DNA of 64,000 bases, from assembly GCF_000682735.1 (NCBI RefSeq), contig NZ_AWFD01000012.1, positions 186,001-250,000 on the forward strand, given 5' to 3'. Every line of letters starts with the position of its first letter. The stretch's first letter is position 1. Shown here in pieces: positions 10,460-23,100 of the stretch. Both the position numbers and the translations under genes were made by a program. This DNA is from Hyphomonas sp. CY54-11-8. Its GTDB lineage: Bacteria > Pseudomonadota > Alphaproteobacteria > Caulobacterales > Hyphomonadaceae. The notes beneath the pieces were generated by a model that saw only the letters and a list, made by a program, of their open reading frames with translations, was not told where the DNA came from and did not search any database.

Positions 10460-11841
10460 TGCAGAACGCCCTCGGATTCATGCCCGGTGAACACAACTGG
10501 ATGGAAGGCAAGCCCATGCCGGGGCAAACCGCCCCCATGCAGGAGAAAAAGCGCGGCCCCGTGATGGGTGCCCTGAATGCCCTGTTCCAGTACGGCGCCC
10601 CGGAAGCGTATCAGGCTGGCGTCCAGCAGAAGATGAACAAGGGCATTTCCAACGCGCTGGCCGGTGGCGACTATGGCGGGGCCGCACAGGCTGCCTACGG
10701 CGCAAACGACTGGCAGACCGGAATGCAGCTTGGCCAGATGGGCCAGCAAGCACAGGATGCCCAGCGCCAACAGGAAGCACAAGGCGTGCTGAACCTGTTC
10801 TCTGCCGCCCAGCCAGCCCAGATCAGCGAAATGGCCATGACAGATCCTGTCGGATTCGAGCGCATGACCGGCATGACCGCAGACGAGTACATGCAGGCAG
10901 GTCAGCGCATGGCGCAGGCAGGCCTCTCTCCGGAGCAGTTCCATCAGTACGTGATCCAGAAGGCGCAGGCCGAGCTGGGGATGGCGCCTGCCGGACCTGT
11001 CGAGGGCAAGGCGATCAATAACCGCCTCGTGGACCCGTACACCGGCAAGGTGATGGGTGACTACAGCGATCCAGCGGCGCCGGAATACGAACGCGTCACG
11101 ACCGCTGATGGCATTTACGAGTACATTCCCGGCCAGCCTGAGAGCATGCGCAAGATCGGGGAAGCGCCGGTCAAGTCTCCGCTGGTCAATGTGAACACGG
11201 GCGATGTGGGCGCGGGTGACCGCCCTATCGTGGACAAGCCGCCGAAGGGCTACCAGCGCGTGTGGGATCCGGAGTCCCAGACCTACCGCGACATGCCGAT
11301 CCCCGGAAGCGCGGACGAACGCGACGATGCAGCGATGCGCCTGAAAGCCACTCAGAGACTGGCTGCTGAAGGCGAGCAGTTCAGCACCATGGTTAGCAAC
11401 ATTGATGATGCCATCAACATGGTGGACAACACGTCTGCGGGCTTTGGCGCGATGACTGAGGGCATTCCGACAACGCCAGCCCGAAACCTGAAGGCCAAAC
11501 TTGAAACGGTGCAGGCCCTGATCGGCTTCGACAAGCTGAACGAGATGCGCCAGACCAGCCCAACCGGTGGTGCACTTGGCAACGTGACAGAGCGCGAACT
11601 TGCGTTCCTGCAATCAGTTCGCGGCTCGCTTGATACGCGCCAGAGCCCCGAACAGCTGAAGGCTACACTGGCGGACGTAAAGGCGTCCCTGGAGCGCTTG
11701 CAGGAAGTGCGGGAAATCGCATTCCGCATGGAAAACGGATTGCTGGAACCGGGGCAGGAAAAGCCGAAGGTGTCTGTTGCTCCGCCTGATCCGGCTGAGA
11801 TCGACGCATTGGTCAATCAGTACCTGAACGGACCGCAATAA
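10459..11841 (+). CDS. Putative ejection / internal virion protein (gp20 position)
   Basis: This is a roughly 461-residue protein rich in Met, Gln, Ala and Gly in its first 150 residues. A linker follows and then a helical C-terminal half from about residue 285. The start is chosen at the second ATG of ATGATG because CGGAGG lies 6 nt before it; the ATG at 10456 is an alternative, and a GTG at 10441 is too far upstream. It overlaps the previous stop, and its own TAA overlaps the next ATG. The position corresponds to P22 gp20, which is injected with the DNA. No enzymatic motif was seen. Confidence 0.68.
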   Translation: MQNALGFMPGEHNWMEGKPMPGQTAPMQEKKRGPVMGALNALFQYGAPEAYQAGVQQKMNKGISNALAGGDYGGAAQAAYGANDWQTGMQLGQMGQQAQDAQRQQEAQGVLNLFSAAQPAQISEMAMTDPVGFERMTGMTADEYMQAGQRMAQAGLSPEQFHQYVIQKAQAELGMAPAGPVEGKAINNRLVDPYTGKVMGDYSDPAAPEYERVTTADGIYEYIPGQPESMRKIGEAPVKSPLVNVNTGDVGAGDRPIVDKPPKGYQRVWDPESQTYRDMPIPGSADERDDAAMRLKATQRLAAEGEQFSTMVSNIDDAINMVDNTSAGFGAMTEGIPTTPARNLKAKLETVQALIGFDKLNEMRQTSPTGGALGNVTERELAFLQSVRGSLDTRQSPEQLKATLADVKASLERLQEVREIAFRMENGLLEPGQEKPKVSVAPPDPAEIDALVNQYLNGPQ

Positions 11842-14800
11842 TGCCAACCCGCGAAGAACTTGGTATTGCGCTGAAAAATGCGCATACGGCTGGCGATGCC
11901 GAGGCGGCACGCAAGCTGGCAGCGGCTATCCAGCAGATGGATATGCAGCCTTCCATGGCTACCACCACGCCCGACTTCCAGAACGGCGGCATGGACCTTG
12001 TGTCTGAGGGAGGGCCTCAGTCGCAGCCAAAGATGGGGCGCGCTCAAAGCGGCTACACAGGCGCACAGAGCGGCTTTGCATGGGGCACGGCAGATGAGCA
12101 GGCCGGCATCAAGCGCCTGCGTGCGGACAAGCTCGGACGCGTGGGCGAAGGCGTGAACTTTGCCGCTAGATTTATTCCAGGCATGGGCGTGGCTGATGCT
12201 GCGGCGGGCACAATCGCAGATATGCGCGGCATGGGCGGCTCGTTCCGTGAGGGCGTCGAAGACCGCCGTGCGCAGGAAACAAAGGCGCGCACGGATAATC
12301 CGGTCTCGTACATGGCGGGTGAAATTGTCGGCAGCTCTGTCGCGCCTGTCGGTGGATCGGCAAGGGCTGCGACGAAAACGGCACAAATCGGTAAGGGAAT
12401 GGCGACAGGCGCAGGCGCTGGCGGTGTTTACAGCTTCGGCGCTGAAGACGGAACCCTTCTGGACCGTGCAAAAGCTGGGGGAATTGGTGCTGTGGGTGGC
12501 GCTGCCTTCGGTGGTGCGCTCTCAGCCGTCATCCCGCGTAACATTCCGCTTGGCGACGTCCTCAACGCCGAGCTGTTCGGTGCCAAGGTTGAGCGGCCCG
12601 TCCTCAAGACCATCGAGCGTATGCTGATCGACAGTGGTGTCTCCCCGAACGACATAAGTGCGGGGATAGTAAACATCCGCCAGAGACTGCAAAGCGGCGA
12701 TGTTTCGTCTGGACTGCCGACGCGGTTCAAGGATGAGCTGGTCAAAGAGTTTGGCGAGAAAGCGCGCGGGGTAAGTAAGGCGGTCGAAAACCAGATACGC
12801 GGCGGCGCAGCACGCTCTGGCAGCGCGTCGGATGCGGCTGTCGCGGCGGCTGTGAGTGAGGACAACGCGGCTGCTCGTGAGCTGTTTAGTCGTTCGCTGG
12901 ATCAATTTGCTGGCACCGCCTCCCGCCCGGAACTCCGTGGCCAAGCCATCGATCAACTCGGCCAGATTGTCGAAGAACAGTATAAGCCGATTTTGGCGCA
13001 ACCGATAGTCGATCCTGCGAAAAAGCAGGCGCTTGTTGATGTGCTGAACCTGCCGCGTATGCAGAAGCTTACGACAGACCTCGCAGAAGATGCCGAACGC
13101 GAAGGTATCGACCTTGCGCAGATGATCCAGAACAACCCCGCAGAGGCGGCGCACTGGATGCAATCCAAGGCTCGCCAGCTGGCTGATGATCGGGGCCGTG
13201 TCTCGGCTTCGGGGCGTGTCCTGCCAGACCGCACCATGTCAAACCGCCGGCAGGACATCCTGAATGCGCTCGAAGATGCCGTTCCAGGATACCGCGAAGC
13301 CCGCATGGAGTTCGGAGACAAGTACGGCGTCACGCAAGCCGTTAACTTTGCCAAGGGCTTTCTGAGCCGCGCAAAGGACGATGTGGCCGTATCTGACATG
13401 GCGGAAGAGTTCTCAAACATGTCGCAGGCCCAGCAGCAAATGGCCGTAGCGTCCATGCGCAGCATTCTTCAGGGCTCTGCTGAAAACGTCCGCTACGTTG
13501 ATCCGGAAGTTGGCGCTTCAGCGCTCAGGACCGCTGAAATCGGCAAAGAGCCTGTATTGCGCGCTCTCTCGGATGTGTTCGGAGAACAAGGCACAAAGAT
13601 CGCTGACGACATCAAAGCGATTGTGTCGCGCACAGATGCCAATCGTAGGATCAATCCGCAGGCCACCGGTTCGGACACCACCCCGAAAGCCGAGGCAATC
13701 AAGTTCGCTATGCGCAACACACGCGGCCCGCTTCAGCGCGGGATCGGCGCCGTGTTCGGCAGCGTGCCGTCTGACCTGCTTGGCTCGGCCCTTGTTGGCG
13801 CACCCACACCGATCGGTGCAGCCCGTGCGGCATCTCAGGGCGTCGGCAAAATGGCTGACCGCCGCGCCATGTCCACCGTGGACAAGGTGACGGAACTTCT
13901 GCTGGCGCGTCCGCAGAATGCTCTGGCGCCGAACAATGCCCCGCGTGGTGGATCACCACCCGTTAGCGGTGGCAGCATTGTGGACCAGATCGGACAGGAA
14001 GCGCAAACGAAACCAGCCAATGCGCTGGCACCTCAGCAGCCCATGAAGTCATCCGGCACAGCCACTTTCGGAAACGACCTCGCCAATGCAGCAGTCGGCG
14101 GAACAGTCGGTGGCATGGGCGGCAGCTTCTCCGGTGAGTTTATCGACTACAACAAGGACGGCAAGATCGATGAGACCGACAAGCAGATCGGTTTCCTGAT
14201 CGGCACGGGTGTTGGGGCCTTTGGTGCGCCTGCTGGCACGCGGGTTGGGGTCAAGGGTCAGCGGTTCGACATGAAGGGCTCCGGCCCATCCGGCAAGCTC
14301 CCCAAGCTGAAAGGTTCAGCATCCGTAGATGTCTCCAGACAGGGCGATACACTCACCATCAATATGTTGAAGGTTCCAGAAGGCTTGCGTGGAACAGGTG
14401 AAGCATCACGCGCTGTAGATGATATACTAAAACAGGCTGATGCCGAAGGGCTCACGGTTTTCTTGACTGCCGATCCAGTCGGCTCTGGTGGCCTATCAAA
14501 ATCCCAGCTTGAGGCGTTTTATAAGCGCCGCGGATTCGTCTCGAACTCTGGCAGAAATAAGGACTTCCGCGCCCAAGCGGGAATGGTTCGACACCCACAG
14601 ACACCGATGCGTGGAGCCGGAATTTCTGGTCCTCCCAAGCCCCCCAAGCTGATGAAGGATGTCCCCAGAGGAAAGCCCCCCAAAGGCGGCAACCCGAACC
14701 TCGGGCAAGGCAACCTGATCCGCCAGCAGTACGAGGGCAAGAACCCGCCACGTCTTCCGGAGGGGCCTATGACGGATGCGCAGATCAAGGCCCGCAAAGC

Positions 14801-15143
14801 CCGCGAAGCCGCCATGCCGCTGATCGAGCAAGGCCTGTCAGGTGAAGCCATCCGCCAGCAAACCGGCGTCCAGACGCTCACTTACAAAGGCCAGACGGTC
14901 ATCCTCCCGCCATACCTGAACGGCGTGAACAATGAAGCCATCCATCGCTTCTTCTATGACAGCCTGAAGCAGCCTTTCGAGAAGCGCCCGAAATGGGTCC
15001 AGAATGCCTTGCGCCAGATAGCAAGCAGCGAAGATGACGCCCTGCGCCAGCAGTCGCTCTGGGACCAGAAGAACCCCCTGGCTCTCGGCACGGAACGCAC
15101 GCCGATGGTGAAGCCGGGCAAGAATGCCCTCAGCGGCAAGTAG
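11841..15143 (+). CDS. Large internal virion / ejection protein (gp16 position) with EF-hand and GNAT-like segments
   Basis: This 1100-residue protein is long, mostly helical and Ala/Gly-rich. It has hydrophobic glycine-rich patches near residues 175 to 240 and 745 to 800 that could insert into a membrane. Residues 769 to 780 (DYNKDGKIDETD) form an EF-hand-like loop. Residues about 825 to 920 (LKVPEGLRGTGEASRAVDDIL, then LEAFYKRRGFV) look like the core and C-terminal helix-strand of a GNAT-type acetyltransferase fold. A basic Pro/Lys region follows. It lies directly before the tailspike, the P22 gp16 position, and likely forms part of the trans-envelope DNA channel. Confidence 0.72.
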   Translation: MPTREELGIALKNAHTAGDAEAARKLAAAIQQMDMQPSMATTTPDFQNGGMDLVSEGGPQSQPKMGRAQSGYTGAQSGFAWGTADEQAGIKRLRADKLGRVGEGVNFAARFIPGMGVADAAAGTIADMRGMGGSFREGVEDRRAQETKARTDNPVSYMAGEIVGSSVAPVGGSARAATKTAQIGKGMATGAGAGGVYSFGAEDGTLLDRAKAGGIGAVGGAAFGGALSAVIPRNIPLGDVLNAELFGAKVERPVLKTIERMLIDSGVSPNDISAGIVNIRQRLQSGDVSSGLPTRFKDELVKEFGEKARGVSKAVENQIRGGAARSGSASDAAVAAAVSEDNAAARELFSRSLDQFAGTASRPELRGQAIDQLGQIVEEQYKPILAQPIVDPAKKQALVDVLNLPRMQKLTTDLAEDAEREGIDLAQMIQNNPAEAAHWMQSKARQLADDRGRVSASGRVLPDRTMSNRRQDILNALEDAVPGYREARMEFGDKYGVTQAVNFAKGFLSRAKDDVAVSDMAEEFSNMSQAQQQMAVASMRSILQGSAENVRYVDPEVGASALRTAEIGKEPVLRALSDVFGEQGTKIADDIKAIVSRTDANRRINPQATGSDTTPKAEAIKFAMRNTRGPLQRGIGAVFGSVPSDLLGSALVGAPTPIGAARAASQGVGKMADRRAMSTVDKVTELLLARPQNALAPNNAPRGGSPPVSGGSIVDQIGQEAQTKPANALAPQQPMKSSGTATFGNDLANAAVGGTVGGMGGSFSGEFIDYNKDGKIDETDKQIGFLIGTGVGAFGAPAGTRVGVKGQRFDMKGSGPSGKLPKLKGSASVDVSRQGDTLTINMLKVPEGLRGTGEASRAVDDILKQADAEGLTVFLTADPVGSGGLSKSQLEAFYKRRGFVSNSGRNKDFRAQAGMVRHPQTPMRGAGISGPPKPPKLMKDVPRGKPPKGGNPNLGQGNLIRQQYEGKNPPRLPEGPMTDAQIKARKAREAAMPLIEQGLSGEAIRQQTGVQTLTYKGQTVILPPYLNGVNNEAIHRFFYDSLKQPFEKRPKWVQNALRQIASSEDDALRQQSLWDQKNPLALGTERTPMVKPGKNALSGK

Positions 15144-15182: not shown

Positions 15183-17795
15183 ATGGCCACGGCAATTCCT
15201 TTCGGGGACGTCCCACAGGTATACGACAATGGAAGCCCGCTTTCGGGTGGGAAGATCTATTTCTATGCGCCTGGCACCTCGACGCTGCGCACACCGTATT
15301 CCGACACGGCGCTGAGTGTTCCGACGACAAACCCCGTCCTGCTGAACTCTGCGGGCTGGCCAGCCACGAATGTCTACCTCGATAGCTCTCAGGCCTATGA
15401 CTACATCATCAAGTCTGCAGACGATGCCGAGACGCTCTGGCCGCGCACGACAATTCCATCCAATGCGTCTGCTTCCCAGCCGGTGGACGCGACCCTGACG
15501 GGCATTGCCGCGCTTGTTGGCACAGATGGCGACAGTGTTGAATGGACCGGCACGGATACGTTCCGCACTGTCAAGCGTACGGTGGCCACTTATTCCGCAC
15601 TCAAGGCAATCACAGGCCAGCAGTCAGGTGACGAGGTTGCTGTGCTCGGTCGCACTACGGCGGGAGACGGTGGTAATGGGCATTTCCGCTGGGCAACGGG
15701 TGACCAGTCCACCAACGTGACTAATGATGCCTCCAGCGGCATTTATGTACCGCCGGACAGTGACACAGACGGCTCCAGTGGGTGTTGGGTGCGGCAGACG
15801 GATGGATCACGGCGATTCAATGGCCTCTGGTTTGGTGCGGTTGGAGACGGCGCAACAGACAACGCAACTGTCATGAACAACATGGTCGCCTTTATCGATG
15901 CCTTCAGCGTCGATGGCGGGGAGTTGTATTTCCCGGCTGGCACATACCAGATTGCAAGCGAAGTGACGCTGGACGTCATTGGGTTCCGGTTGACAGGGGA
16001 TGGCCTGATTTCCGATGGCGACATAGCCACATCGGCCCTGACGATATTCGAGGGCACAGGCACAACGGCGCCTGTGTTTCGCATCAAAGTGGACAGGTTC
16101 CACCTGAATGGCTTCATGGTGTCGTCTGACGCAACCAGGTACGCGGCGACAAAGGTTACGGCTTCAAATTATTCGGGGCTGTCCCTGACGCGCAACGACC
16201 AGAACTTTGGTATCTGGATTGAGCCTGACGATAGTGCGTCCTCCGATGAGGTGGGCAATTTCCACGTCGAAGATGTCTGGATTGAGAAACAGCCTAATTC
16301 CAACTGGGTCATTTGTGGCAAGACATATGTGTCGGTGATCGAACGGTCTGGTTCCCGGTATTCCGGGGAACATGGCTGGGTTTTTGACAAAGGCACCTAC
16401 ACAGGCCGCACGAATGTTGAAAGCACAGGCATTATCGATGTCTACGGGTGTGAGGCCTATCAAAATGACGGCCACGGCCTGTGTTGCGGGCACCCTGATG
16501 ATGATAGCGGTCCTTCTACGATCCGCATGACAATCATCAATTTTGACTCTTACACCAATGGGCAGGATGCTGCCGTCCTTCACGAAACATATGATACCTA
16601 TTTCATTGCGGATAACAGCCGGATTGAGTACTCGGCATTTAACGGAAACAATACGCGCGGCGGCGTCTACACCGCAGGGTTAGGTATTGAACTCCTGAAC
16701 AACAGATACCTTGATATCTCTTCCTCGCTTGAGCCGGTCATGGTGGACGGCACGCATTGCACGGGTACGCCGCGAACCACTTACGGGGTCAGGGTCTGGG
16801 GCGGATATGTGACCAGCTCCGGCACCTGCACAAATTTTGTCAGCACGCAAAACTCCCCAAACAATGTAGATGTCGAGGTGGACGTCCTGACGGGTGCATT
16901 CACCAATGCAGCTCCTACCTCCGTCATGGTCCGGCGCAAGCAGGGCGCGCTCCTCTGGAACGTGAACCTGACCCAGACCGGAACGCAGACACTGACCGGC
17001 AATACGACCCGTACCGGGACACTGACCCAGACCAGCGACATGACCGTTTCTGGCGGCGTCCTGAATGTTACGCGGGACTCAAATGTTGTTGCTGTCATCA
17101 ACCGGACGACCAATGATGGCGACCTGATTTTCCTCCGACAAGACGGAACGACCGAAGGCACAATCAGTGTTTCAGGAACAACGGTCACCTACGGGTCATT
17201 CAACGGGTCGCACTGGTCGCAGTTTGAGGACCAGTCCTATCCCGATCTCCTGCCAGGCACGATCCTGTCATCTGTTGACGCCCTTTGCTCATGGAAATGG
17301 GACACATGGATGGAATGCGTGGAAGAAGCGGTTGTGAACGTCTTCACGGATGGCACCCAAGAGGAAGCGAGCCCGGCCCGCTATGAAGATCGCAGCGTCT
17401 GGTACACGGGCGACTTGCTGGATGGCGACACCTATACAGATGAACAGGGCAGGGTTCACACGATCGCAGAAGACGGCAATGACCGATTGCCAATGGTGGA
17501 GGTGAGCCAGTCAGCCGGGGATACGGCGGTCTATGGTGTGTTCCAGGGGCTTAGTAATTCAGACGGCGAGCCGGATATGTTTGTCGGAGCGCTTGGCGCC
17601 GGAAACATCAGGATTGCAGCTGGTGAGACCGTCCAGCGCGGCGACCTCATTGAAAGCAATGGAGACGGTTGCGGCAAAGTGCAGGCAGATGACGTCTTCC
17701 GGGCCTCTACCGTGGCAAAAGTCACATCAGCGGAAGTGATCGAGACTTACCCGGATGGGAGTTACCTGGTGCCGTGCACGCTGCACTGTGGCTAG
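15183..17795 (+). CDS. Tailspike with pectate-lyase-like beta-helix and C-terminal peptidase G2-like domain
   Basis: This 870-residue receptor-binding protein has three parts. The N-terminal head-binding region opens with IPFGDVPQVYDNGSPLSGGKIYFYAPGT. A parallel beta-helix starts at the classic FGAVGDGATDN motif near residue 218, which in this family binds or cuts surface polysaccharide. A C-terminal part from about residue 700 resembles the peptidase G2 intramolecular chaperone/autocleavage domain. Between these parts, bases 16968 to 17045 encode short Thr-Gln-Thr-Gly repeats. Specificity cannot be read from sequence. Its TAG shares the CTAG palindrome with the stop of the opposite methyltransferase gene. 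Confidence 0.82.
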   Translation: MATAIPFGDVPQVYDNGSPLSGGKIYFYAPGTSTLRTPYSDTALSVPTTNPVLLNSAGWPATNVYLDSSQAYDYIIKSADDAETLWPRTTIPSNASASQPVDATLTGIAALVGTDGDSVEWTGTDTFRTVKRTVATYSALKAITGQQSGDEVAVLGRTTAGDGGNGHFRWATGDQSTNVTNDASSGIYVPPDSDTDGSSGCWVRQTDGSRRFNGLWFGAVGDGATDNATVMNNMVAFIDAFSVDGGELYFPAGTYQIASEVTLDVIGFRLTGDGLISDGDIATSALTIFEGTGTTAPVFRIKVDRFHLNGFMVSSDATRYAATKVTASNYSGLSLTRNDQNFGIWIEPDDSASSDEVGNFHVEDVWIEKQPNSNWVICGKTYVSVIERSGSRYSGEHGWVFDKGTYTGRTNVESTGIIDVYGCEAYQNDGHGLCCGHPDDDSGPSTIRMTIINFDSYTNGQDAAVLHETYDTYFIADNSRIEYSAFNGNNTRGGVYTAGLGIELLNNRYLDISSSLEPVMVDGTHCTGTPRTTYGVRVWGGYVTSSGTCTNFVSTQNSPNNVDVEVDVLTGAFTNAAPTSVMVRRKQGALLWNVNLTQTGTQTLTGNTTRTGTLTQTSDMTVSGGVLNVTRDSNVVAVINRTTNDGDLIFLRQDGTTEGTISVSGTTVTYGSFNGSHWSQFEDQSYPDLLPGTILSSVDALCSWKWDTWMECVEEAVVNVFTDGTQEEASPARYEDRSVWYTGDLLDGDTYTDEQGRVHTIAEDGNDRLPMVEVSQSAGDTAVYGVFQGLSNSDGEPDMFVGALGAGNIRIAAGETVQRGDLIESNGDGCGKVQADDVFRASTVAKVTSAEVIETYPDGSYLVPCTLHCG

Positions 17796-18565
17796 ATGAA
17801 CCGCGTCATCTCGACAAGATGGTCAACCGGCTTGCCACGATCCGCGATGAAGTAGGCATTGTTTGTGGTTGTCTTCGCTCCGCCACGGTTCACATGGGGA
17901 TGTTCGATCAGGCGGGGGTCAGACATGCCGGCCCATTCCAGCATCTTCAGGAACAGCGGCCGGGTCGCATGCCAGCCAAGCAGGGGCTGGTCACCAAGGT
18001 ATTGAGGGGTGATGTCCGACCGGTTCTGGAGGAAGTCTGACTCGCCTTCGATGCATTGAGTTGAAACGACAAAGTGATCCGCATCGAACTGGCCGACATA
18101 ATCGAGGACGAGTTGCGGGTAACGGAAATGGTAAGCGAGGCCGAGGAAGAGGACGACATCCATATGGCTGGTCTCTTCAGGGCGGATGTCAAAAAGCGCA
18201 TCACCGGAGATGGAAAGCCGTTCTTCGGGAATTCCGAGCGTACCGCGTAGCCATTCGATTTTCTGCCGGTAGGGCTCATAGGGTTCCGCCGCATGGACCG
18301 TTGCCCCGCGCCGGACGAGTTCAACCGAAAGCCCGCCGCAATTGGCACCAATATCAAGGACGCGCTTGCCTTCCCAGAACCCTGCCGGAAAGCCCGCATC
18401 CAGAACCTTTGCAATATCCCAGCTCGCCCAGATGCCAGGAGTGAAAGCCCCTTCGCCAAGCATGCAGCGCTGCTGCCACGGCCCCATGGATTTCGCCTGC
18501 TCAACAGCCCGCAGATCTGAAGTCGAGAACGCAACGTCCGCAATTTTTTCCATGCTGTCAGCCAT
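17792..18565 (-). CDS. SAM-dependent methyltransferase (CmoB/DUF1698-like), prophage moron
   Basis: This is a 257-residue class I methyltransferase. Motif I is VLDIGANCGG (residues 69 to 78), the ribose-binding acid is E94 (HAAEPYEPYR), and the post-motif LFLGLAYHFRYP (139 to 150) is typical of the tRNA mo5U34 methyltransferase-like family. The substrate is unknown; surface glycan, tRNA or a small molecule are all possible. It is the only minus-strand gene in the prophage, sits between spike and lysis-side genes, and has a ribosome-binding site (AAAGGA) and its own candidate promoter inside the divergent gene. This is the layout of a lysogenic conversion gene. Confidence 0.8.
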   Translation of the reverse strand: MADSMEKIADVAFSTSDLRAVEQAKSMGPWQQRCMLGEGAFTPGIWASWDIAKVLDAGFPAGFWEGKRVLDIGANCGGLSVELVRRGATVHAAEPYEPYRQKIEWLRGTLGIPEERLSISGDALFDIRPEETSHMDVVLFLGLAYHFRYPQLVLDYVGQFDADHFVVSTQCIEGESDFLQNRSDITPQYLGDQPLLGWHATRPLFLKMLEWAGMSDPRLIEHPHVNRGGAKTTTNNAYFIADRGKPVDHLVEMTRFI

Positions 18566-18593
18566 GGGTTTTTCCTTTCAGGAGGAGTTTGAA

Positions 18594-19187
18594 ATGCAGC
18601 AGAAGATTGAATCCATCCTAGCTGGAACCGATCATGACGCCAACCCGGTCGGCCACCTTTGGGCGATCCGCGTTGGCAACCATTCCGGAGCACGTTCTGA
18701 CGGTGTTGGGCTCGCCCGTGAATTGCTCTCGAAATACCGCCTTGAGCGCGGTGAACGCATCGCGCACCCGGAGCCGGTAACTGTCAGCGGCGAGGCGAAG
18801 CGCGGGGCGGTGCAGGAAGTAGAGTTACCGCCTGCACCGCCTACACCTGAAGTCGTGGAAAAGGTCATCGAAAACCCAGAGACACAGGAACGTCTCGCAG
18901 AGGCGCTGCGCAAGCTAGATGAAGCGAATGCCAAGCTGGAAGCGAAGAAGGCAGGGACTGACATTCCCCCGCCGGAAATCGCTGACCTGATCCGCCTGAA
19001 CGAGAACTACGAGCGGACCAATGAACGGCTCGTAACCGGCTACCGCGAAGCTATGCAGCGCGCAGAGCTGGCCCGCACCCGTGACGGCATCTTTGAAGGC
19101 AAGTCCACCACGGAATGGCTGCGCAAGGCAGATCGCTATGACAGCGCGATCCGCTGGAACAAGGGCCGGAGTGCCGAGACTATCTAA
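18594..19187 (+). CDS. Phage protein of unknown function, coiled-coil
   Basis: This 197-residue protein is not recognised. It has an N-terminal region of about 60 residues, a Pro/Glu linker around residues 78 to 100, and a charged helical segment (about 105 to 175). It ends with TRDGIFEGKSTTEWLRKADRYD. The start is set by a strong GGAGGAG 6 nt before the ATG at 18594; the frame is open far upstream but only across the antisense methyltransferase gene. Only 28 bp separate its ATG from the methyltransferase ATG. It leads the lysis-side gene set. Confidence 0.72.
   Translation: MQQKIESILAGTDHDANPVGHLWAIRVGNHSGARSDGVGLARELLSKYRLERGERIAHPEPVTVSGEAKRGAVQEVELPPAPPTPEVVEKVIENPETQERLAEALRKLDEANAKLEAKKAGTDIPPPEIADLIRLNENYERTNERLVTGYREAMQRAELARTRDGIFEGKSTTEWLRKADRYDSAIRWNKGRSAETI
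18615..18643 (-). promoter_or_regulatory. Candidate sigma70-type promoter for the prophage methyltransferase
   Basis: On the minus strand a -35 like TTGGCG (18643 to 18638) is followed after exactly 17 bp by a -10 like TAGGAT (18620 to 18615), about 50 bp before the methyltransferase ATG. Each hexamer matches consensus at four of six bases. It lies inside the coding region of the divergent gene because the 28-bp intergenic space is too short for a promoter. It would allow expression independent of late phage transcription. Confidence 0.4.
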
Positions 19188-19207
19188 CTGACAGAAAGGG
19201 CGGGGGC

Positions 19208-19606
19208 ATGGACGACGACCTGCACACGAGGCTTACCCTGTTGGAACGCACGGCAGTATCCAAGGACCAGCTGGTAGAGCGTGAGGACAAGCTGCTTGGC
19301 CGCATGGAAGACATGCTGAAGCGGTATATCTCGCAAGCCTCGGATGACCAGAAACACCAGTTCAAGCTGTTCGGCCATGAAATGGCAGACCAGTTGCGGG
19401 CGTGGGAAAAGAAGATCCACAGCGACCGTGACGAGATCGATGAAAAGCGGGAAGCAGAACGCGCGCCGCCTCCGCCACCACCGCAAGCGCTTTCCCCGAT
19501 CCGCACATGGGTTGTGGCCAATTGGGCATGGGCCATCGGCATTGCACTGCTGATCGTGGCGCTACGTCCTGACCTCGCTGCGGCAGCTTTTCGCGTACTT
19601 ACCTGA
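19208..19606 (+). CDS. Phage membrane protein with C-terminal transmembrane helix (holin or XhlA-like candidate)
   Basis: This 132-residue protein has a charged helical N-terminal region (residues 1 to 80) and a run of six prolines. One C-terminal transmembrane helix (WVVANWAWAIGIALLIVALRP, about 100 to 121) follows. The soluble coiled coil plus C-terminal anchor recalls XhlA-type lysis accessory proteins, but no sequence motif proves it. It lies two genes upstream of the lysozyme, so a lysis role is plausible. Alternatives are an anchoring protein for virion assembly or an exclusion protein. Confidence 0.7.
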   Translation: MDDDLHTRLTLLERTAVSKDQLVEREDKLLGRMEDMLKRYISQASDDQKHQFKLFGHEMADQLRAWEKKIHSDRDEIDEKREAERAPPPPPPQALSPIRTWVVANWAWAIGIALLIVALRPDLAAAAFRVLT

Positions 19607-19619
19607 CAGGGGCTGACAG

Positions 19620-20903
19620 ATGAAAGAGTTCTTCACGTCGCTATGGGGCGGCACGACCGCATGTGCATCATGGATGCGTCACCAGTTCGCGGCGTTCTTT
19701 GCCAGCTTCTGGCTGTACGTCATCCTCTGGACGGTGGTGTTCGGGGCGTTTGTTGTCCTGCTCTACATTGACGGCAAGTTCAGCCGGCACCTTGCAGAAG
19801 GGGCGGCAATTGCGCCGCTCAGCTTCCAGGCAATGGGCTGGATGTACCGCCTGTTCGCTGCATCCTTCCTGATGGCCGCTGCCCGGTGCGCCTACAAGGG
19901 CATCAAGGGTAGGGCGACGTTCTATTTTCTGGGCGTGTTTGCGTCGATCATTGTCTGCATGCACGCCTTTGGGTTTGGCTTCGAGGCCCTGAGCGACAGG
20001 CGTGACCAGGCGATGGCCGCCCGTGAAATCGTGGCCGTCAAATCCGAGTCCAATGACGAAGTGATCAACGCCCTGAAAGAGCGCAAGGTAACCATTGACG
20101 GCGACCTTGAACGCGCGGTGGCCACACTGGATGCCGAAATCACGCAATACATCACGGACGGCAAGAACAACGACTATCTGGCAGACGACGCCCGTGTTCG
20201 CCGCAATGCGCTGCAGGACGAGGCACGGCTGGCCAAGCAGGACATTGACGCCCAGATCATCAACCTGATGACGGCAAGCGTCACGGACCGTCAGGAGGCC
20301 GTGGAAACGGCAGCAACGGCCAAGCCATGGGCGCCCCTGTTCATCGGTATTGCCCAGCTTGTCACATGGTCCAAGGAACCATCGGATTGGGCCATCTACC
20401 TGTGCGCCATCGGGTTCATCATATTCTGGGTGCTGCTCGGGGAAAGCCTCGTTATTTTCCTGCCGGAGCGCATCTATGTGATGCACCTGCATGACCGTCA
20501 GGAGCAAATCGACGCCAAGCGCTCCGAAGCCGCCAAGAAAGGCTGGGAAACCCGCAAGGCGAAGGAAGAGGCCAAACCGGAAGAGAACATCCCCGTCCGT
20601 GACGATGGCTACTGGTCCGAGCGTATCCGCAAGGCCTTGCGTACCAAGATGAAGAACCCGACCGCAGAGGGCATGTGGAACACGTATTTTCCCGGCCTTG
20701 CCTCTGTCCATGAACTGCGCGGCAAGCTGAGCGTTCGCCTGAAGCGCGGGCAAATGAGCCAGGACGAGTTCGACTTCATCATGCGGGAAGGTGAGTACGC
20801 GCCCCCGCCTCCGAAGGAATACCCGGTCGCACGTCAGGATGATCCTGAAATTGAACCGGACAATGAGGACGAAGACGAGGCGCCGCCCGTCGCTGCCGAG
20901 TAG
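19620..20903 (+). CDS. Phage multi-pass membrane protein of unknown function
   Basis: This 427-residue protein is not recognised. Three hydrophobic helices (about residues 28 to 50, 68 to 87 and 94 to 116) are followed by a long charged, probably coiled-coil segment (about 125 to 225). A fourth helix or hairpin lies near residues 258 to 283. The roughly 140-residue tail is basic (RSEAAKKGWETRKAKEEAK) and then acidic and Pro-rich. The upstream signal AGGGGCTGA is repeated before the lysozyme gene. It could be a holin-associated, exclusion or membrane-stress protein; no evidence chooses between these. Confidence 0.7.
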   Translation: MKEFFTSLWGGTTACASWMRHQFAAFFASFWLYVILWTVVFGAFVVLLYIDGKFSRHLAEGAAIAPLSFQAMGWMYRLFAASFLMAAARCAYKGIKGRATFYFLGVFASIIVCMHAFGFGFEALSDRRDQAMAAREIVAVKSESNDEVINALKERKVTIDGDLERAVATLDAEITQYITDGKNNDYLADDARVRRNALQDEARLAKQDIDAQIINLMTASVTDRQEAVETAATAKPWAPLFIGIAQLVTWSKEPSDWAIYLCAIGFIIFWVLLGESLVIFLPERIYVMHLHDRQEQIDAKRSEAAKKGWETRKAKEEAKPEENIPVRDDGYWSERIRKALRTKMKNPTAEGMWNTYFPGLASVHELRGKLSVRLKRGQMSQDEFDFIMREGEYAPPPPKEYPVARQDDPEIEPDNEDEDEAPPVAAE

Positions 20904-23023: not shown

Positions 23024-23100
23024 TGGTCGGAGTGAGAGGATTCGAACCTCCGGCCCCTGCCTCCCGAAGACAGTGCTCTACCAGGCTGAGCTACACTCCG
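23024..23100 (-). tRNA. tRNA-Pro(CGG)
   Basis: Read on the minus strand, 77 bases fold into a full cloverleaf with encoded CCA. The acceptor stem is CGGAGTG/CACTCCG with discriminator A, the D-stem is GCTC/GAGC, and the anticodon stem is CTGTC/GGCAG. The anticodon loop is TTCGGGA, giving anticodon CGG with G at position 37. The T-arm carries TTCGAAT. The 3' end points to the prophage and is the likely integration site. Confidence 0.95.

What the first reader, a model, noticed from the sequence alone, without database searches (positions are those of the whole stretch)
17792..18643. Opposite-strand methyltransferase moron with a private promoter and abutting stop codons
A SAM methyltransferase of the CmoB/DUF1698 type stands alone on the minus strand between tailspike and lysis-side genes. 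Its stop shares CTAG with the tailspike stop, and its ATG is 28 bp from the divergent ATG. A TTGGCG-N17-TAGGAT promoter lies within the divergent gene. This is the hallmark layout of a gene expressed in the lysogen; it may modify host surface glycans or tRNA and alter superinfection.
Basis: partly seen in the sequence, partly recalled or inferred. Interest (0 to 1): 0.7.

Follow-up and report, generated by a model that had tools for sequence, protein, structure and literature searches.

The report
Prophage tailspike–methyltransferase surface-conversion cassette
A phage living in this bacterium's chromosome carries, tail to tail with the spike that attacks the cell coat, an enzyme that probably adds methyl groups to that same coat, and the two genes travel together between unrelated phages.

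Summary
The gene is real: a 257-aa class I SAM-type methyltransferase on the minus strand (17792-18565), its stop overlapping a tailspike's stop in CTAG, 28 bp from a divergent start. It lies in a ~46-47-kb prophage at tRNA-Pro with P22-like head proteins. The 'private promoter' is not supported (8/12 match; 174 of 1000 shuffles do as well). The protein has the CmoB fold but fails CmoB tests: far below cut-offs, no N-terminal domain, carboxy-SAM lysine replaced by Gln, no CmoA or CmoB above cut-off in the genome. Cellular relatives (TIGR04290-like) sit among glycosyltransferases and sugar epimerases. Going beyond the finding, three phage backbones carry the same convergent pair, and clear homology between them, in DNA and in six-frame translation, is confined to the tailspike's receptor part, its C-terminus and this gene. 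P22 (gtrCBA) and Sf6 (oac) hold their O-antigen-converting genes in the same tail-to-tail slot. Best reading: a surface-glycan O-methyltransferase for lysogenic conversion, inherited with the spike whose receptor it masks (0.62). New variant of a known kind. Substrate, expression and superinfection effect are untested.

The parts
17792..18565 (-). CmoB-fold class I SAM-type methyltransferase, 257 aa; proposed surface-glycan O-methyltransferase
   Evidence: ORF; TIGR04290 56.2 bits, E 3.2e-15, below its cut-off of 300; model pLDDT 82.9, best PDB matches CmoB, then EvdMO1
15183..17795 (+). Tailspike, 870 aa: head-binding part ~1-200, beta-helix receptor part ~213-600, C-terminus ~601-870 (division mine, from the alignment)
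   Evidence: Pect-lyase_RHGA_epim E 4.7e-7, 30.2 bits, cut-off 27; domain identities
17792..17795 (.). CTAG holding both overlapping stop codons; same arrangement in L005 (964-967)
16185..18486 (.). Span of the only DNA homology (blastn E 1e-5) to the other three loci: the exchanged cassette
   Evidence: in six-frame translation the strong block is about 15735-18751
18566..18593 (.). 28-bp gap between divergent starts; holds AGGAGGAG for the + gene and AAGGA for the methyltransferase
   Evidence: read by eye
18594..19187 (+). Divergent gene, 197 aa, no family match; not part of the cassette
   Evidence: outside the shared DNA
18615..18643 (-). Claimed promoter TTGGCG-N17-TAGGAT; not distinguishable from chance
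23024..23100 (-). tRNA-Pro(cgg), likely attachment site; its 46-bp end (23024-23069) recurs exactly at C12:161842 and C12:162902, so the prophage spans about 46-47 kb

Best explanation
The gene is a surface-conversion gene in the P22/Sf6 style, with a methyltransferase in place of a glucosyl- or acetyltransferase. Shown: a CmoB-fold enzyme (predicted structure) under purifying selection, encoded tail to tail with a tailspike, and shared together with that spike's receptor-binding part between otherwise different phages. Inferred: it uses SAM to O-methylate a sugar of the host's surface polysaccharide or its precursor, the polysaccharide the spike binds or cleaves. Methylated glycan would no longer suit the spike, so the lysogen would escape re-adsorption by the same phage and by phages with the same spike, and released progeny would not be lost on debris. 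Expression from the prophage is assumed.
For: Convergent with a tailspike in 4 of 4 loci that hold the close homologue, on 3 backbones; DNA homology confined to the cassette; in six-frame translation no stretch outside it exceeds 32 bits, against 530-773 inside (of L005 only 10,964 of 43,943 bases were compared). Spike head-binding part 23-33% identical, receptor part 61-65%, methyltransferase 71-74%. P22 gene 9 / gtrC and Sf6 gene 14 / oac have the same geometry. gtrABC moves among P22-, lambda- and P2-like phages (PMC2629481, passages). Neighbours of 9 cellular relatives: of 54 ORFs scanned, 12 match Glyco_trans_1_2 and 8 Epimerase; 2 of 6 plasmid relatives were opened and both stand beside glycosyltransferase runs. 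EvdMO1, crystallised with SAH and D-fucose, is the next fold match after CmoB. In L005 the gene stands at the contig end beside what reads by eye as a tRNA end (ARAGORN calls none there), with a weak, below-cut-off integrase match near the other end of the record. The host has no second copy at E 0.001.
Against: No substrate, transcript or phenotype is known. The promoter is weak and the relatives' upstream regions show none better. CmoB, a tRNA enzyme, is the best structural match, and one of the best viral fold matches is annotated as a tRNA mo5U34 methyltransferase. Only three lineages. In this prophage the gene is 4.5 kb from the attachment core, not beside it. Distant viral relatives lie among head genes as well as sugar genes. 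The paper searches named gave no methylation-based prophage conversion, so the chemistry has no direct precedent there.
Confidence: 0.62

Rival explanations
1. A tRNA-modifying enzyme of the CmoB kind that alters the wobble position for phage translation.
For: The top 8 Foldseek PDB hits are CmoB chains (TM by query 0.69-0.73); Tyr200 is conserved as Tyr145; a profile with TIGR04290 relatives finds CmoB first in the PDB (E 6.4e-17).
Against: 20.1 bits against a cut-off of 209 and 15.5 against 275; the ~100-residue N-terminal domain is missing; Lys91 becomes Gln32 in 4 of 4 phage proteins; the genome has no CmoA or CmoB above cut-off, though it has weaker matches (best 21.6 and 30.5 bits). It would not explain pairing with the spike.
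Confidence: 0.07
2. It modifies the tailspike or another virion protein, or glycans on the virion, during lytic growth.
For: Physical pairing with the spike in 4 of 4 loci; distant viral relatives occur among structural genes and other methyltransferases.
Against: It is on the opposite strand to the late genes, so late transcription reads it antisense; the P22 and Sf6 counterparts act on the host surface.
Confidence: 0.13
3. Surface-directed cargo kept for host fitness unrelated to phage adsorption, hitch-hiking beside the spike because that end of the late operon tolerates insertions.
For: The region accepts other DNA: three ORFs in L002 and a 0.9-kb stretch in L004 lie between the two genes.
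Against: The same enzyme follows the same receptor part through three backbones; in the collections searched the receptor part was not seen above 50% identity without it.
Confidence: 0.12
4. DNA methyltransferase for anti-restriction.
For: Phages often carry such enzymes (general knowledge).
Against: No [DNS]PP[YFWH] motif in 4 of 4 proteins; the only defence-library match is a 33-residue stretch at 17.8 bits.
Confidence: 0.02

Closest known systems
Sf6 oac (O-antigen acetylase) beside tailspike gene 14
   Same: Single converting enzyme on the opposite strand, tail to tail with the tailspike of a Lederbergvirus
   Different: Acetyltransferase; 33 bp between the genes instead of overlapping stops; next to int; its serotype effect is established (PMC3851460, passages)
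P22 gtrCBA beside tailspike gene 9
   Same: Same convergent slot, 58 bp between the genes; reported to block adsorption by phages using O-antigen (PMC10883804, passages); gtrABC moves between phage types (PMC2629481, passages)
   Different: Three-gene O-antigen glucosylation system; a different enzyme class
TIGR04290 family methyltransferases
   Same: Nearest named family by sequence (56.2 bits); neighbours are glycan genes
   Different: 24-28% identity in the alignment, shorter C-terminal region, far below the cut-off of 300 bits
EvdMO1 N-terminal domain (everninomicin biosynthesis; 5t38, 5t39)
   Same: CmoB-like fold, SAH and D-fucose in the crystal; best single-sequence PDB match, E 0.0063
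   Different: Antibiotic enzyme with fused oxidase (title of reference 15 in PMC10338323); 19-21% identity
CmoB
   Same: Fold and Tyr200 equivalent
   Different: Fails cut-off, N-terminal domain, Lys91 and pathway tests

Membership tests
CmoB (TIGR00452 / NF011650) | Curated score cut-off | tested here: not met
   15.5 of 275 and 20.1 of 209 bits
CmoB (TIGR00452 / NF011650) | Lys91, Tyr200 and Arg315 that coordinate the carboxymethyl group (PMC10491745, passages) | tested here: not met
   Lys91 aligns with Gln32 in 4 of 4; Tyr200 with Tyr145; Arg315 not reliably aligned
CmoB (TIGR00452 / NF011650) | N-terminal domain of about 100 residues | tested here: not met
   29 residues before the shared Trp30, 88 in CmoB
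CmoB (TIGR00452 / NF011650) | CmoA in the same genome to supply carboxy-SAM | tested here: not met
   Best 21.6 bits against 193.3; only 1 of 14 control genomes is over the cut-off, so absence is common
CmoB (TIGR00452 / NF011650) | Fold | tested here: met
   Top 8 Foldseek PDB hits are CmoB chains
TIGR04290 methyltransferase | Curated cut-off of 300 bits | tested here: not met
   56.2 bits
P22/Sf6-type surface-conversion locus | Converting gene convergent with and directly beside the tailspike gene | tested here: met
   window and L005 share overlapping stops; L002 and L004 have 1.3 and 0.9 kb between; reference layouts
P22/Sf6-type surface-conversion locus | Next to int-attP (PMC3851460, passages) | tested here: inconclusive
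   4.5 kb from the attachment core in the window; at the contig end beside a by-eye tRNA end in L005, which ARAGORN does not call
P22/Sf6-type surface-conversion locus | Exchange between phage types | tested here: met
P22/Sf6-type surface-conversion locus | Modifies the tailspike's receptor and blocks adsorption | not testable with these tools
   needs chemistry and adsorption tests
Moron | Own promoter, expressed from the prophage | tested here: inconclusive
   8/12 promoter no better than chance; no expression data
Moron | Absent from otherwise similar phages | not tested
   no close backbone without it was found; among 50,697 phage records only a 54-bp hit

The most novel reading that the evidence does not exclude
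The tailspike and the methyltransferase are a cell-surface counterpart of restriction-modification: the spike cuts or binds only the unmethylated glycan, the enzyme marks the lysogen's glycan as self, and the pair is inherited as one tail-to-tail unit that lets any phage backbone acquire a receptor together with its own immunity to it.
Probability: 0.35. Interest if true: 0.75.

Novelty: new variant of a known kind. Interest (0 to 1): 0.55.

Why it matters
Prophage conversion of surface polysaccharides is known by glucosylation, acetylation and altered polymerisation. A methylating version, linked to its spike across phage types in Alphaproteobacteria, would add a new chemistry. It would also make testable whether receptor-attacking and receptor-masking genes are selected as one exchangeable unit, and would give a layout rule (enzyme tail to tail with a spike) for finding further conversion enzymes in unannotated prophages.

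Tried and rejected
CmoB/tRNA function: disfavoured on score, residue, domain and pathway tests. DNA methyltransferase: no motif. Private promoter: not above chance. The first structure model, from 4 sequences, was too poor to use (pLDDT 50); it was replaced by one from 15 viral sequences. Searches that led nowhere: methyltransferase in 50,697 phage records, none at E 1e-5 or at E 1; PHROGs, none at E 0.01; TIGR04290 in the paper library, 0 papers; profile of the 4 phage proteins alone against the PDB, 0 hits at E 0.01. Paper searches for methylation-based conversion: no such case seen in the listings, which show at most 20 papers each (one search counted 1,098, one search counted 131). Of the papers listed I looked at passages of two: 'methyltransferase' there meant the chromosomal WarA (PMC7168646) and a reference title (PMC9658991). 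In the passages of the superinfection review PMC11436027, O-antigen cases are Oac, gtr and oacB; its one 'methyl' hit is a reference title. PMC13123978 (passages) has acetyltransferases and no occurrence of methyltransferase.

Rows dropped before counts: 3 of 12 distant relatives (L007, L018, L020) were left out. In one search, 54 of the 86 ORFs picked were passed on. In one search, 49 of the 87 neighbour ORFs, from 12 of 18 loci (near-duplicates L040, L041, L052, L054 left out; L046 and L055 gave no clear ORF). In one search, 11 of 18 distant viral loci were used (L056 also left out). Pfam tallies show the first 25 of 63 and of 36 families. The ORFs were picked by length and simple composition rules, not by a gene finder.
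Full report
Observation. The 257-aa ORF at 17792-18565 (-) exists. Its TAG and that of the tailspike (15183-17795, +) overlap in CTAG at 17792-17795, and 28 bp separate its ATG from that of the + gene at 18594. Ribosome-binding-like AAGGA and AGGAGGAG precede the two starts (read by eye). The TTGGCG-N17-TAGGAT site is present but is only 4/6 + 4/6. The tool's 9/12 scan found none in 17700-19300, and 174 of 1000 dinucleotide shuffles of the 150 bp upstream hold such a pair. So the layout is right and the promoter claim is unsupported.

Setting. The window is C12:186001-250000 of a 3.9-Mb genome. The 46-bp end of tRNA-Pro(cgg), window 23024-23069, recurs exactly at C12:161842 and C12:162902, so the prophage is about 46-47 kb and ends at window ~23.0 kb. 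Its portal (phrog_1216, E 1.6e-10), head-closure Hc3 protein (phrog_578, E 2.5e-58) and ejection protein (phrog_598, E 1.8e-8) point to a P22-like podovirus (the label P22-like is my inference).

What the protein is. Pfam gives only Methyltransf_23 below its cut-off (20.5 of 27 bits); PHROGs gives nothing. NCBIfam's best is TIGR04290, 56.2 bits, E 3.2e-15, cut-off 300; CmoB models reach 20.1 and 15.5 bits against 209 and 275. Against the PDB the single sequence finds EvdMO1 first (E 0.0063); a profile with nine TIGR04290-like relatives finds CmoB first (E 6.4e-17), then among others EvdMO1 (9.3e-11) and WbdD (8.1e-8). A model from 15 aligned viral proteins has mean pLDDT 82.9 and pTM 0.82. Its eight best PDB matches are CmoB chains (TM by query 0.69-0.73), then EvdMO1 crystallised with SAH and D-fucose. 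Among viral models the best matches are mostly unnamed or general phage methyltransferases; rank 5 is annotated as a tRNA mo5U34 methyltransferase of a giant virus.

It is not CmoB in function, as far as can be tested. The review PMC10491745 (passages) names Lys91, Tyr200 and Arg315 as carboxymethyl contacts, says Lys91 to Ala abolishes the product and raises SAM affinity, and describes an N-terminal domain unique to CmoB. Aligned with E. coli CmoB from NC_000913, Lys91 falls on Gln32 in 4 of 4 phage proteins, Tyr200 on Tyr145, and the N-terminal domain is missing. The host genome has no CmoA or CmoB above cut-off; weaker matches exist (best 21.6 and 30.5 bits). Only 1 of 14 control genomes is above either cut-off, so this absence is common and only modest evidence.

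Where its relatives live. In 105 genomes of the family, 2 have a match at E 1e-10, the host and G016; in 61 relatives at E 1e-3 a third, weak one appears (G011, 28% identity). In 385 genomes of the class, 10 match at E 1e-10: the host and nine at 29-35% identity. Neighbours of these nine: of 54 ORFs scanned, 12 match Glyco_trans_1_2, 8 Epimerase, 5 Glyco_transf_4, 4 myo-inositol-1-phosphate synthase. Of 6 plasmid records with a match, all below 60% identity, I opened two; in Xanthomonas sacchari and Sphingobium yanoikuyae the gene, annotated TIGR04290, stands in or beside a run of glycosyltransferases. Distant viral relatives have a mixed setting: of 49 neighbours, 7 match Methyltransf_24, 5 Phage_capsid, 2 GDP_Man_Dehyd, and single ORFs match glycosyltransferase families 2, 9, 11 and 17. 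A sugar substrate is favoured, not proved.

The cassette. The close homologue (71-74% to the window's) occurs at three other distinct loci: G016, which is the same contig as L002 (matching coordinates and length, 303262); L004; and L005. In 4 of 4 loci it is convergent with a tailspike. Spike identity to the window's is 23-33% in residues 1-200, 61-65% in 213-600 and 53-54% in 601-870. DNA comparison of 100 kb around the window with 60 kb of G016 and with L024 and L025 (the larger cuts of the L004 and L005 contigs) found homology only within window 16185-18486 at E 1e-5; L025 shares with G016 only the same two genes. Six-frame comparison agrees: outside the cassette no stretch exceeds 32 bits, inside it the best are 530-773. 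Of the L005 record only 10,964 of 43,943 bases were compared, and of L004's 20,684 of 44,500. L002 and L004 are nearly the same phage (99.6% over 9 kb) and count once. That leaves three backbones: P22-like (window), lambda-J-like (phrog_31, phrog_469; L004) and a third with phrog_684 (L005); these labels rest on one or two proteins for L004 and L005. In L005 the stops overlap in CTAG just as in the window; in L002 three ORFs, and in L004 a 0.9-kb stretch, lie between.

Negatives for linkage. Two viral contigs (L029, L030) carry a spike 34% identical over residues 213-678 and no methyltransferase in the DNA held (tblastn at E 1). The receptor part at E 1e-12 occurs in 1 of 385 class genomes, the host itself; the spike in 2 of 61 relatives, the same two that hold the enzyme. 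The linkage rests on few cases, without an exception among the close ones.

Selection. dN/dS is 0.11-0.18 in all 6 pairs of the four methyltransferases (ratios); synonymous sites are near saturation for pairs with the window. Against the window the enzyme is the best-conserved part of the cassette; between L002 and L005 it ties with the spike's C-terminus (85%), with the receptor part at 61%.

Known counterpart. In P22 (NC_002371) tailspike gene 9 ends at 18207 (+) and gtrC lies at 18266-19726 (-), followed by gtrB, gtrA, attP and int. In Sf6 (AF547987) tailspike gene 14 ends at 15590 (+) and oac lies at 15624-16625 (-), followed by int. [quoted passage not shown] PMC2629481 (passages) finds gtrABC in P22-, lambda- and P2-like prophages. 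PMC3851460 (passages) places conversion genes beside int-attP. PMC13228068 (abstract) reports prophage polymerase genes that change capsule and seem to move between prophages. The window gene thus matches in orientation, neighbour and mobility; it differs in chemistry and, in this prophage, in lying 4.5 kb from the attachment core.

Position in L005. The gene stands at the contig end; the first ~50 bases read by eye as part of a tRNA-Lys gene, but ARAGORN calls no tRNA in L005, as would be expected of a cut gene. A weak integrase match (19.7 bits, cut-off 27.1) lies near the other end of the record; the L004 record has none.

Mechanism. Shown: predicted fold, pairing, sharing across backbones, selection. 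Inferred: SAM as donor (from Gln at the Lys91 position), a sugar hydroxyl as acceptor (from family context and EvdMO1), the spike's receptor glycan as target (from pairing and the P22/Sf6 analogy), expression in the lysogen (from orientation only). Because the genes converge, the two transcripts would overlap antisense. Terminator-like sites on the tailspike strand lie near the enzyme's start in L002 (9823-9805) and in the window (18549-18568); their numbers are within or little above what shuffles give (2 found against 0.8 and 1.6).

Verdict. Novel in chemistry and in the closeness of the pairing, not in kind.

Noticed in passing
L002 10687-12009: Three small ORFs follow the methyltransferase on its strand; by eye two share a DGVHDDTEALQAF stretch as at the start of beta-helix proteins, and one begins with an RR-type export-like signal. 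None has a PHROGs match; two were also scanned against PADLOC without a match.
   Followed up: partly
C12:161842 and C12:162902 (upstream of the window): Two exact copies of the 46-bp tRNA-Pro end about 1 kb apart, suggesting an older or second integration event beside the prophage.
   Followed up: no
C12:174052 and C12:178678 (prophage, upstream of the window): ORFs that look by eye like a cytosine and an adenine DNA methyltransferase; not scanned.
   Followed up: no
L043, L044, L049: Distant viral relatives of the methyltransferase carry a similar long C-terminal extension of unknown nature.
   Followed up: no
L002 9805-9823; window 18549-18568: Terminator-like hairpins on the tailspike strand near the methyltransferase start, which would end late transcripts after running antisense through it; not clearly above chance.
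   Followed up: partly
11841-15143: 1100-aa virion-region ORF with a weak acetyltransferase-like stretch (Acetyltransf_CG, 18.3 bits, cut-off 30; phrog_10691, E 5.9e-17).
   Followed up: no
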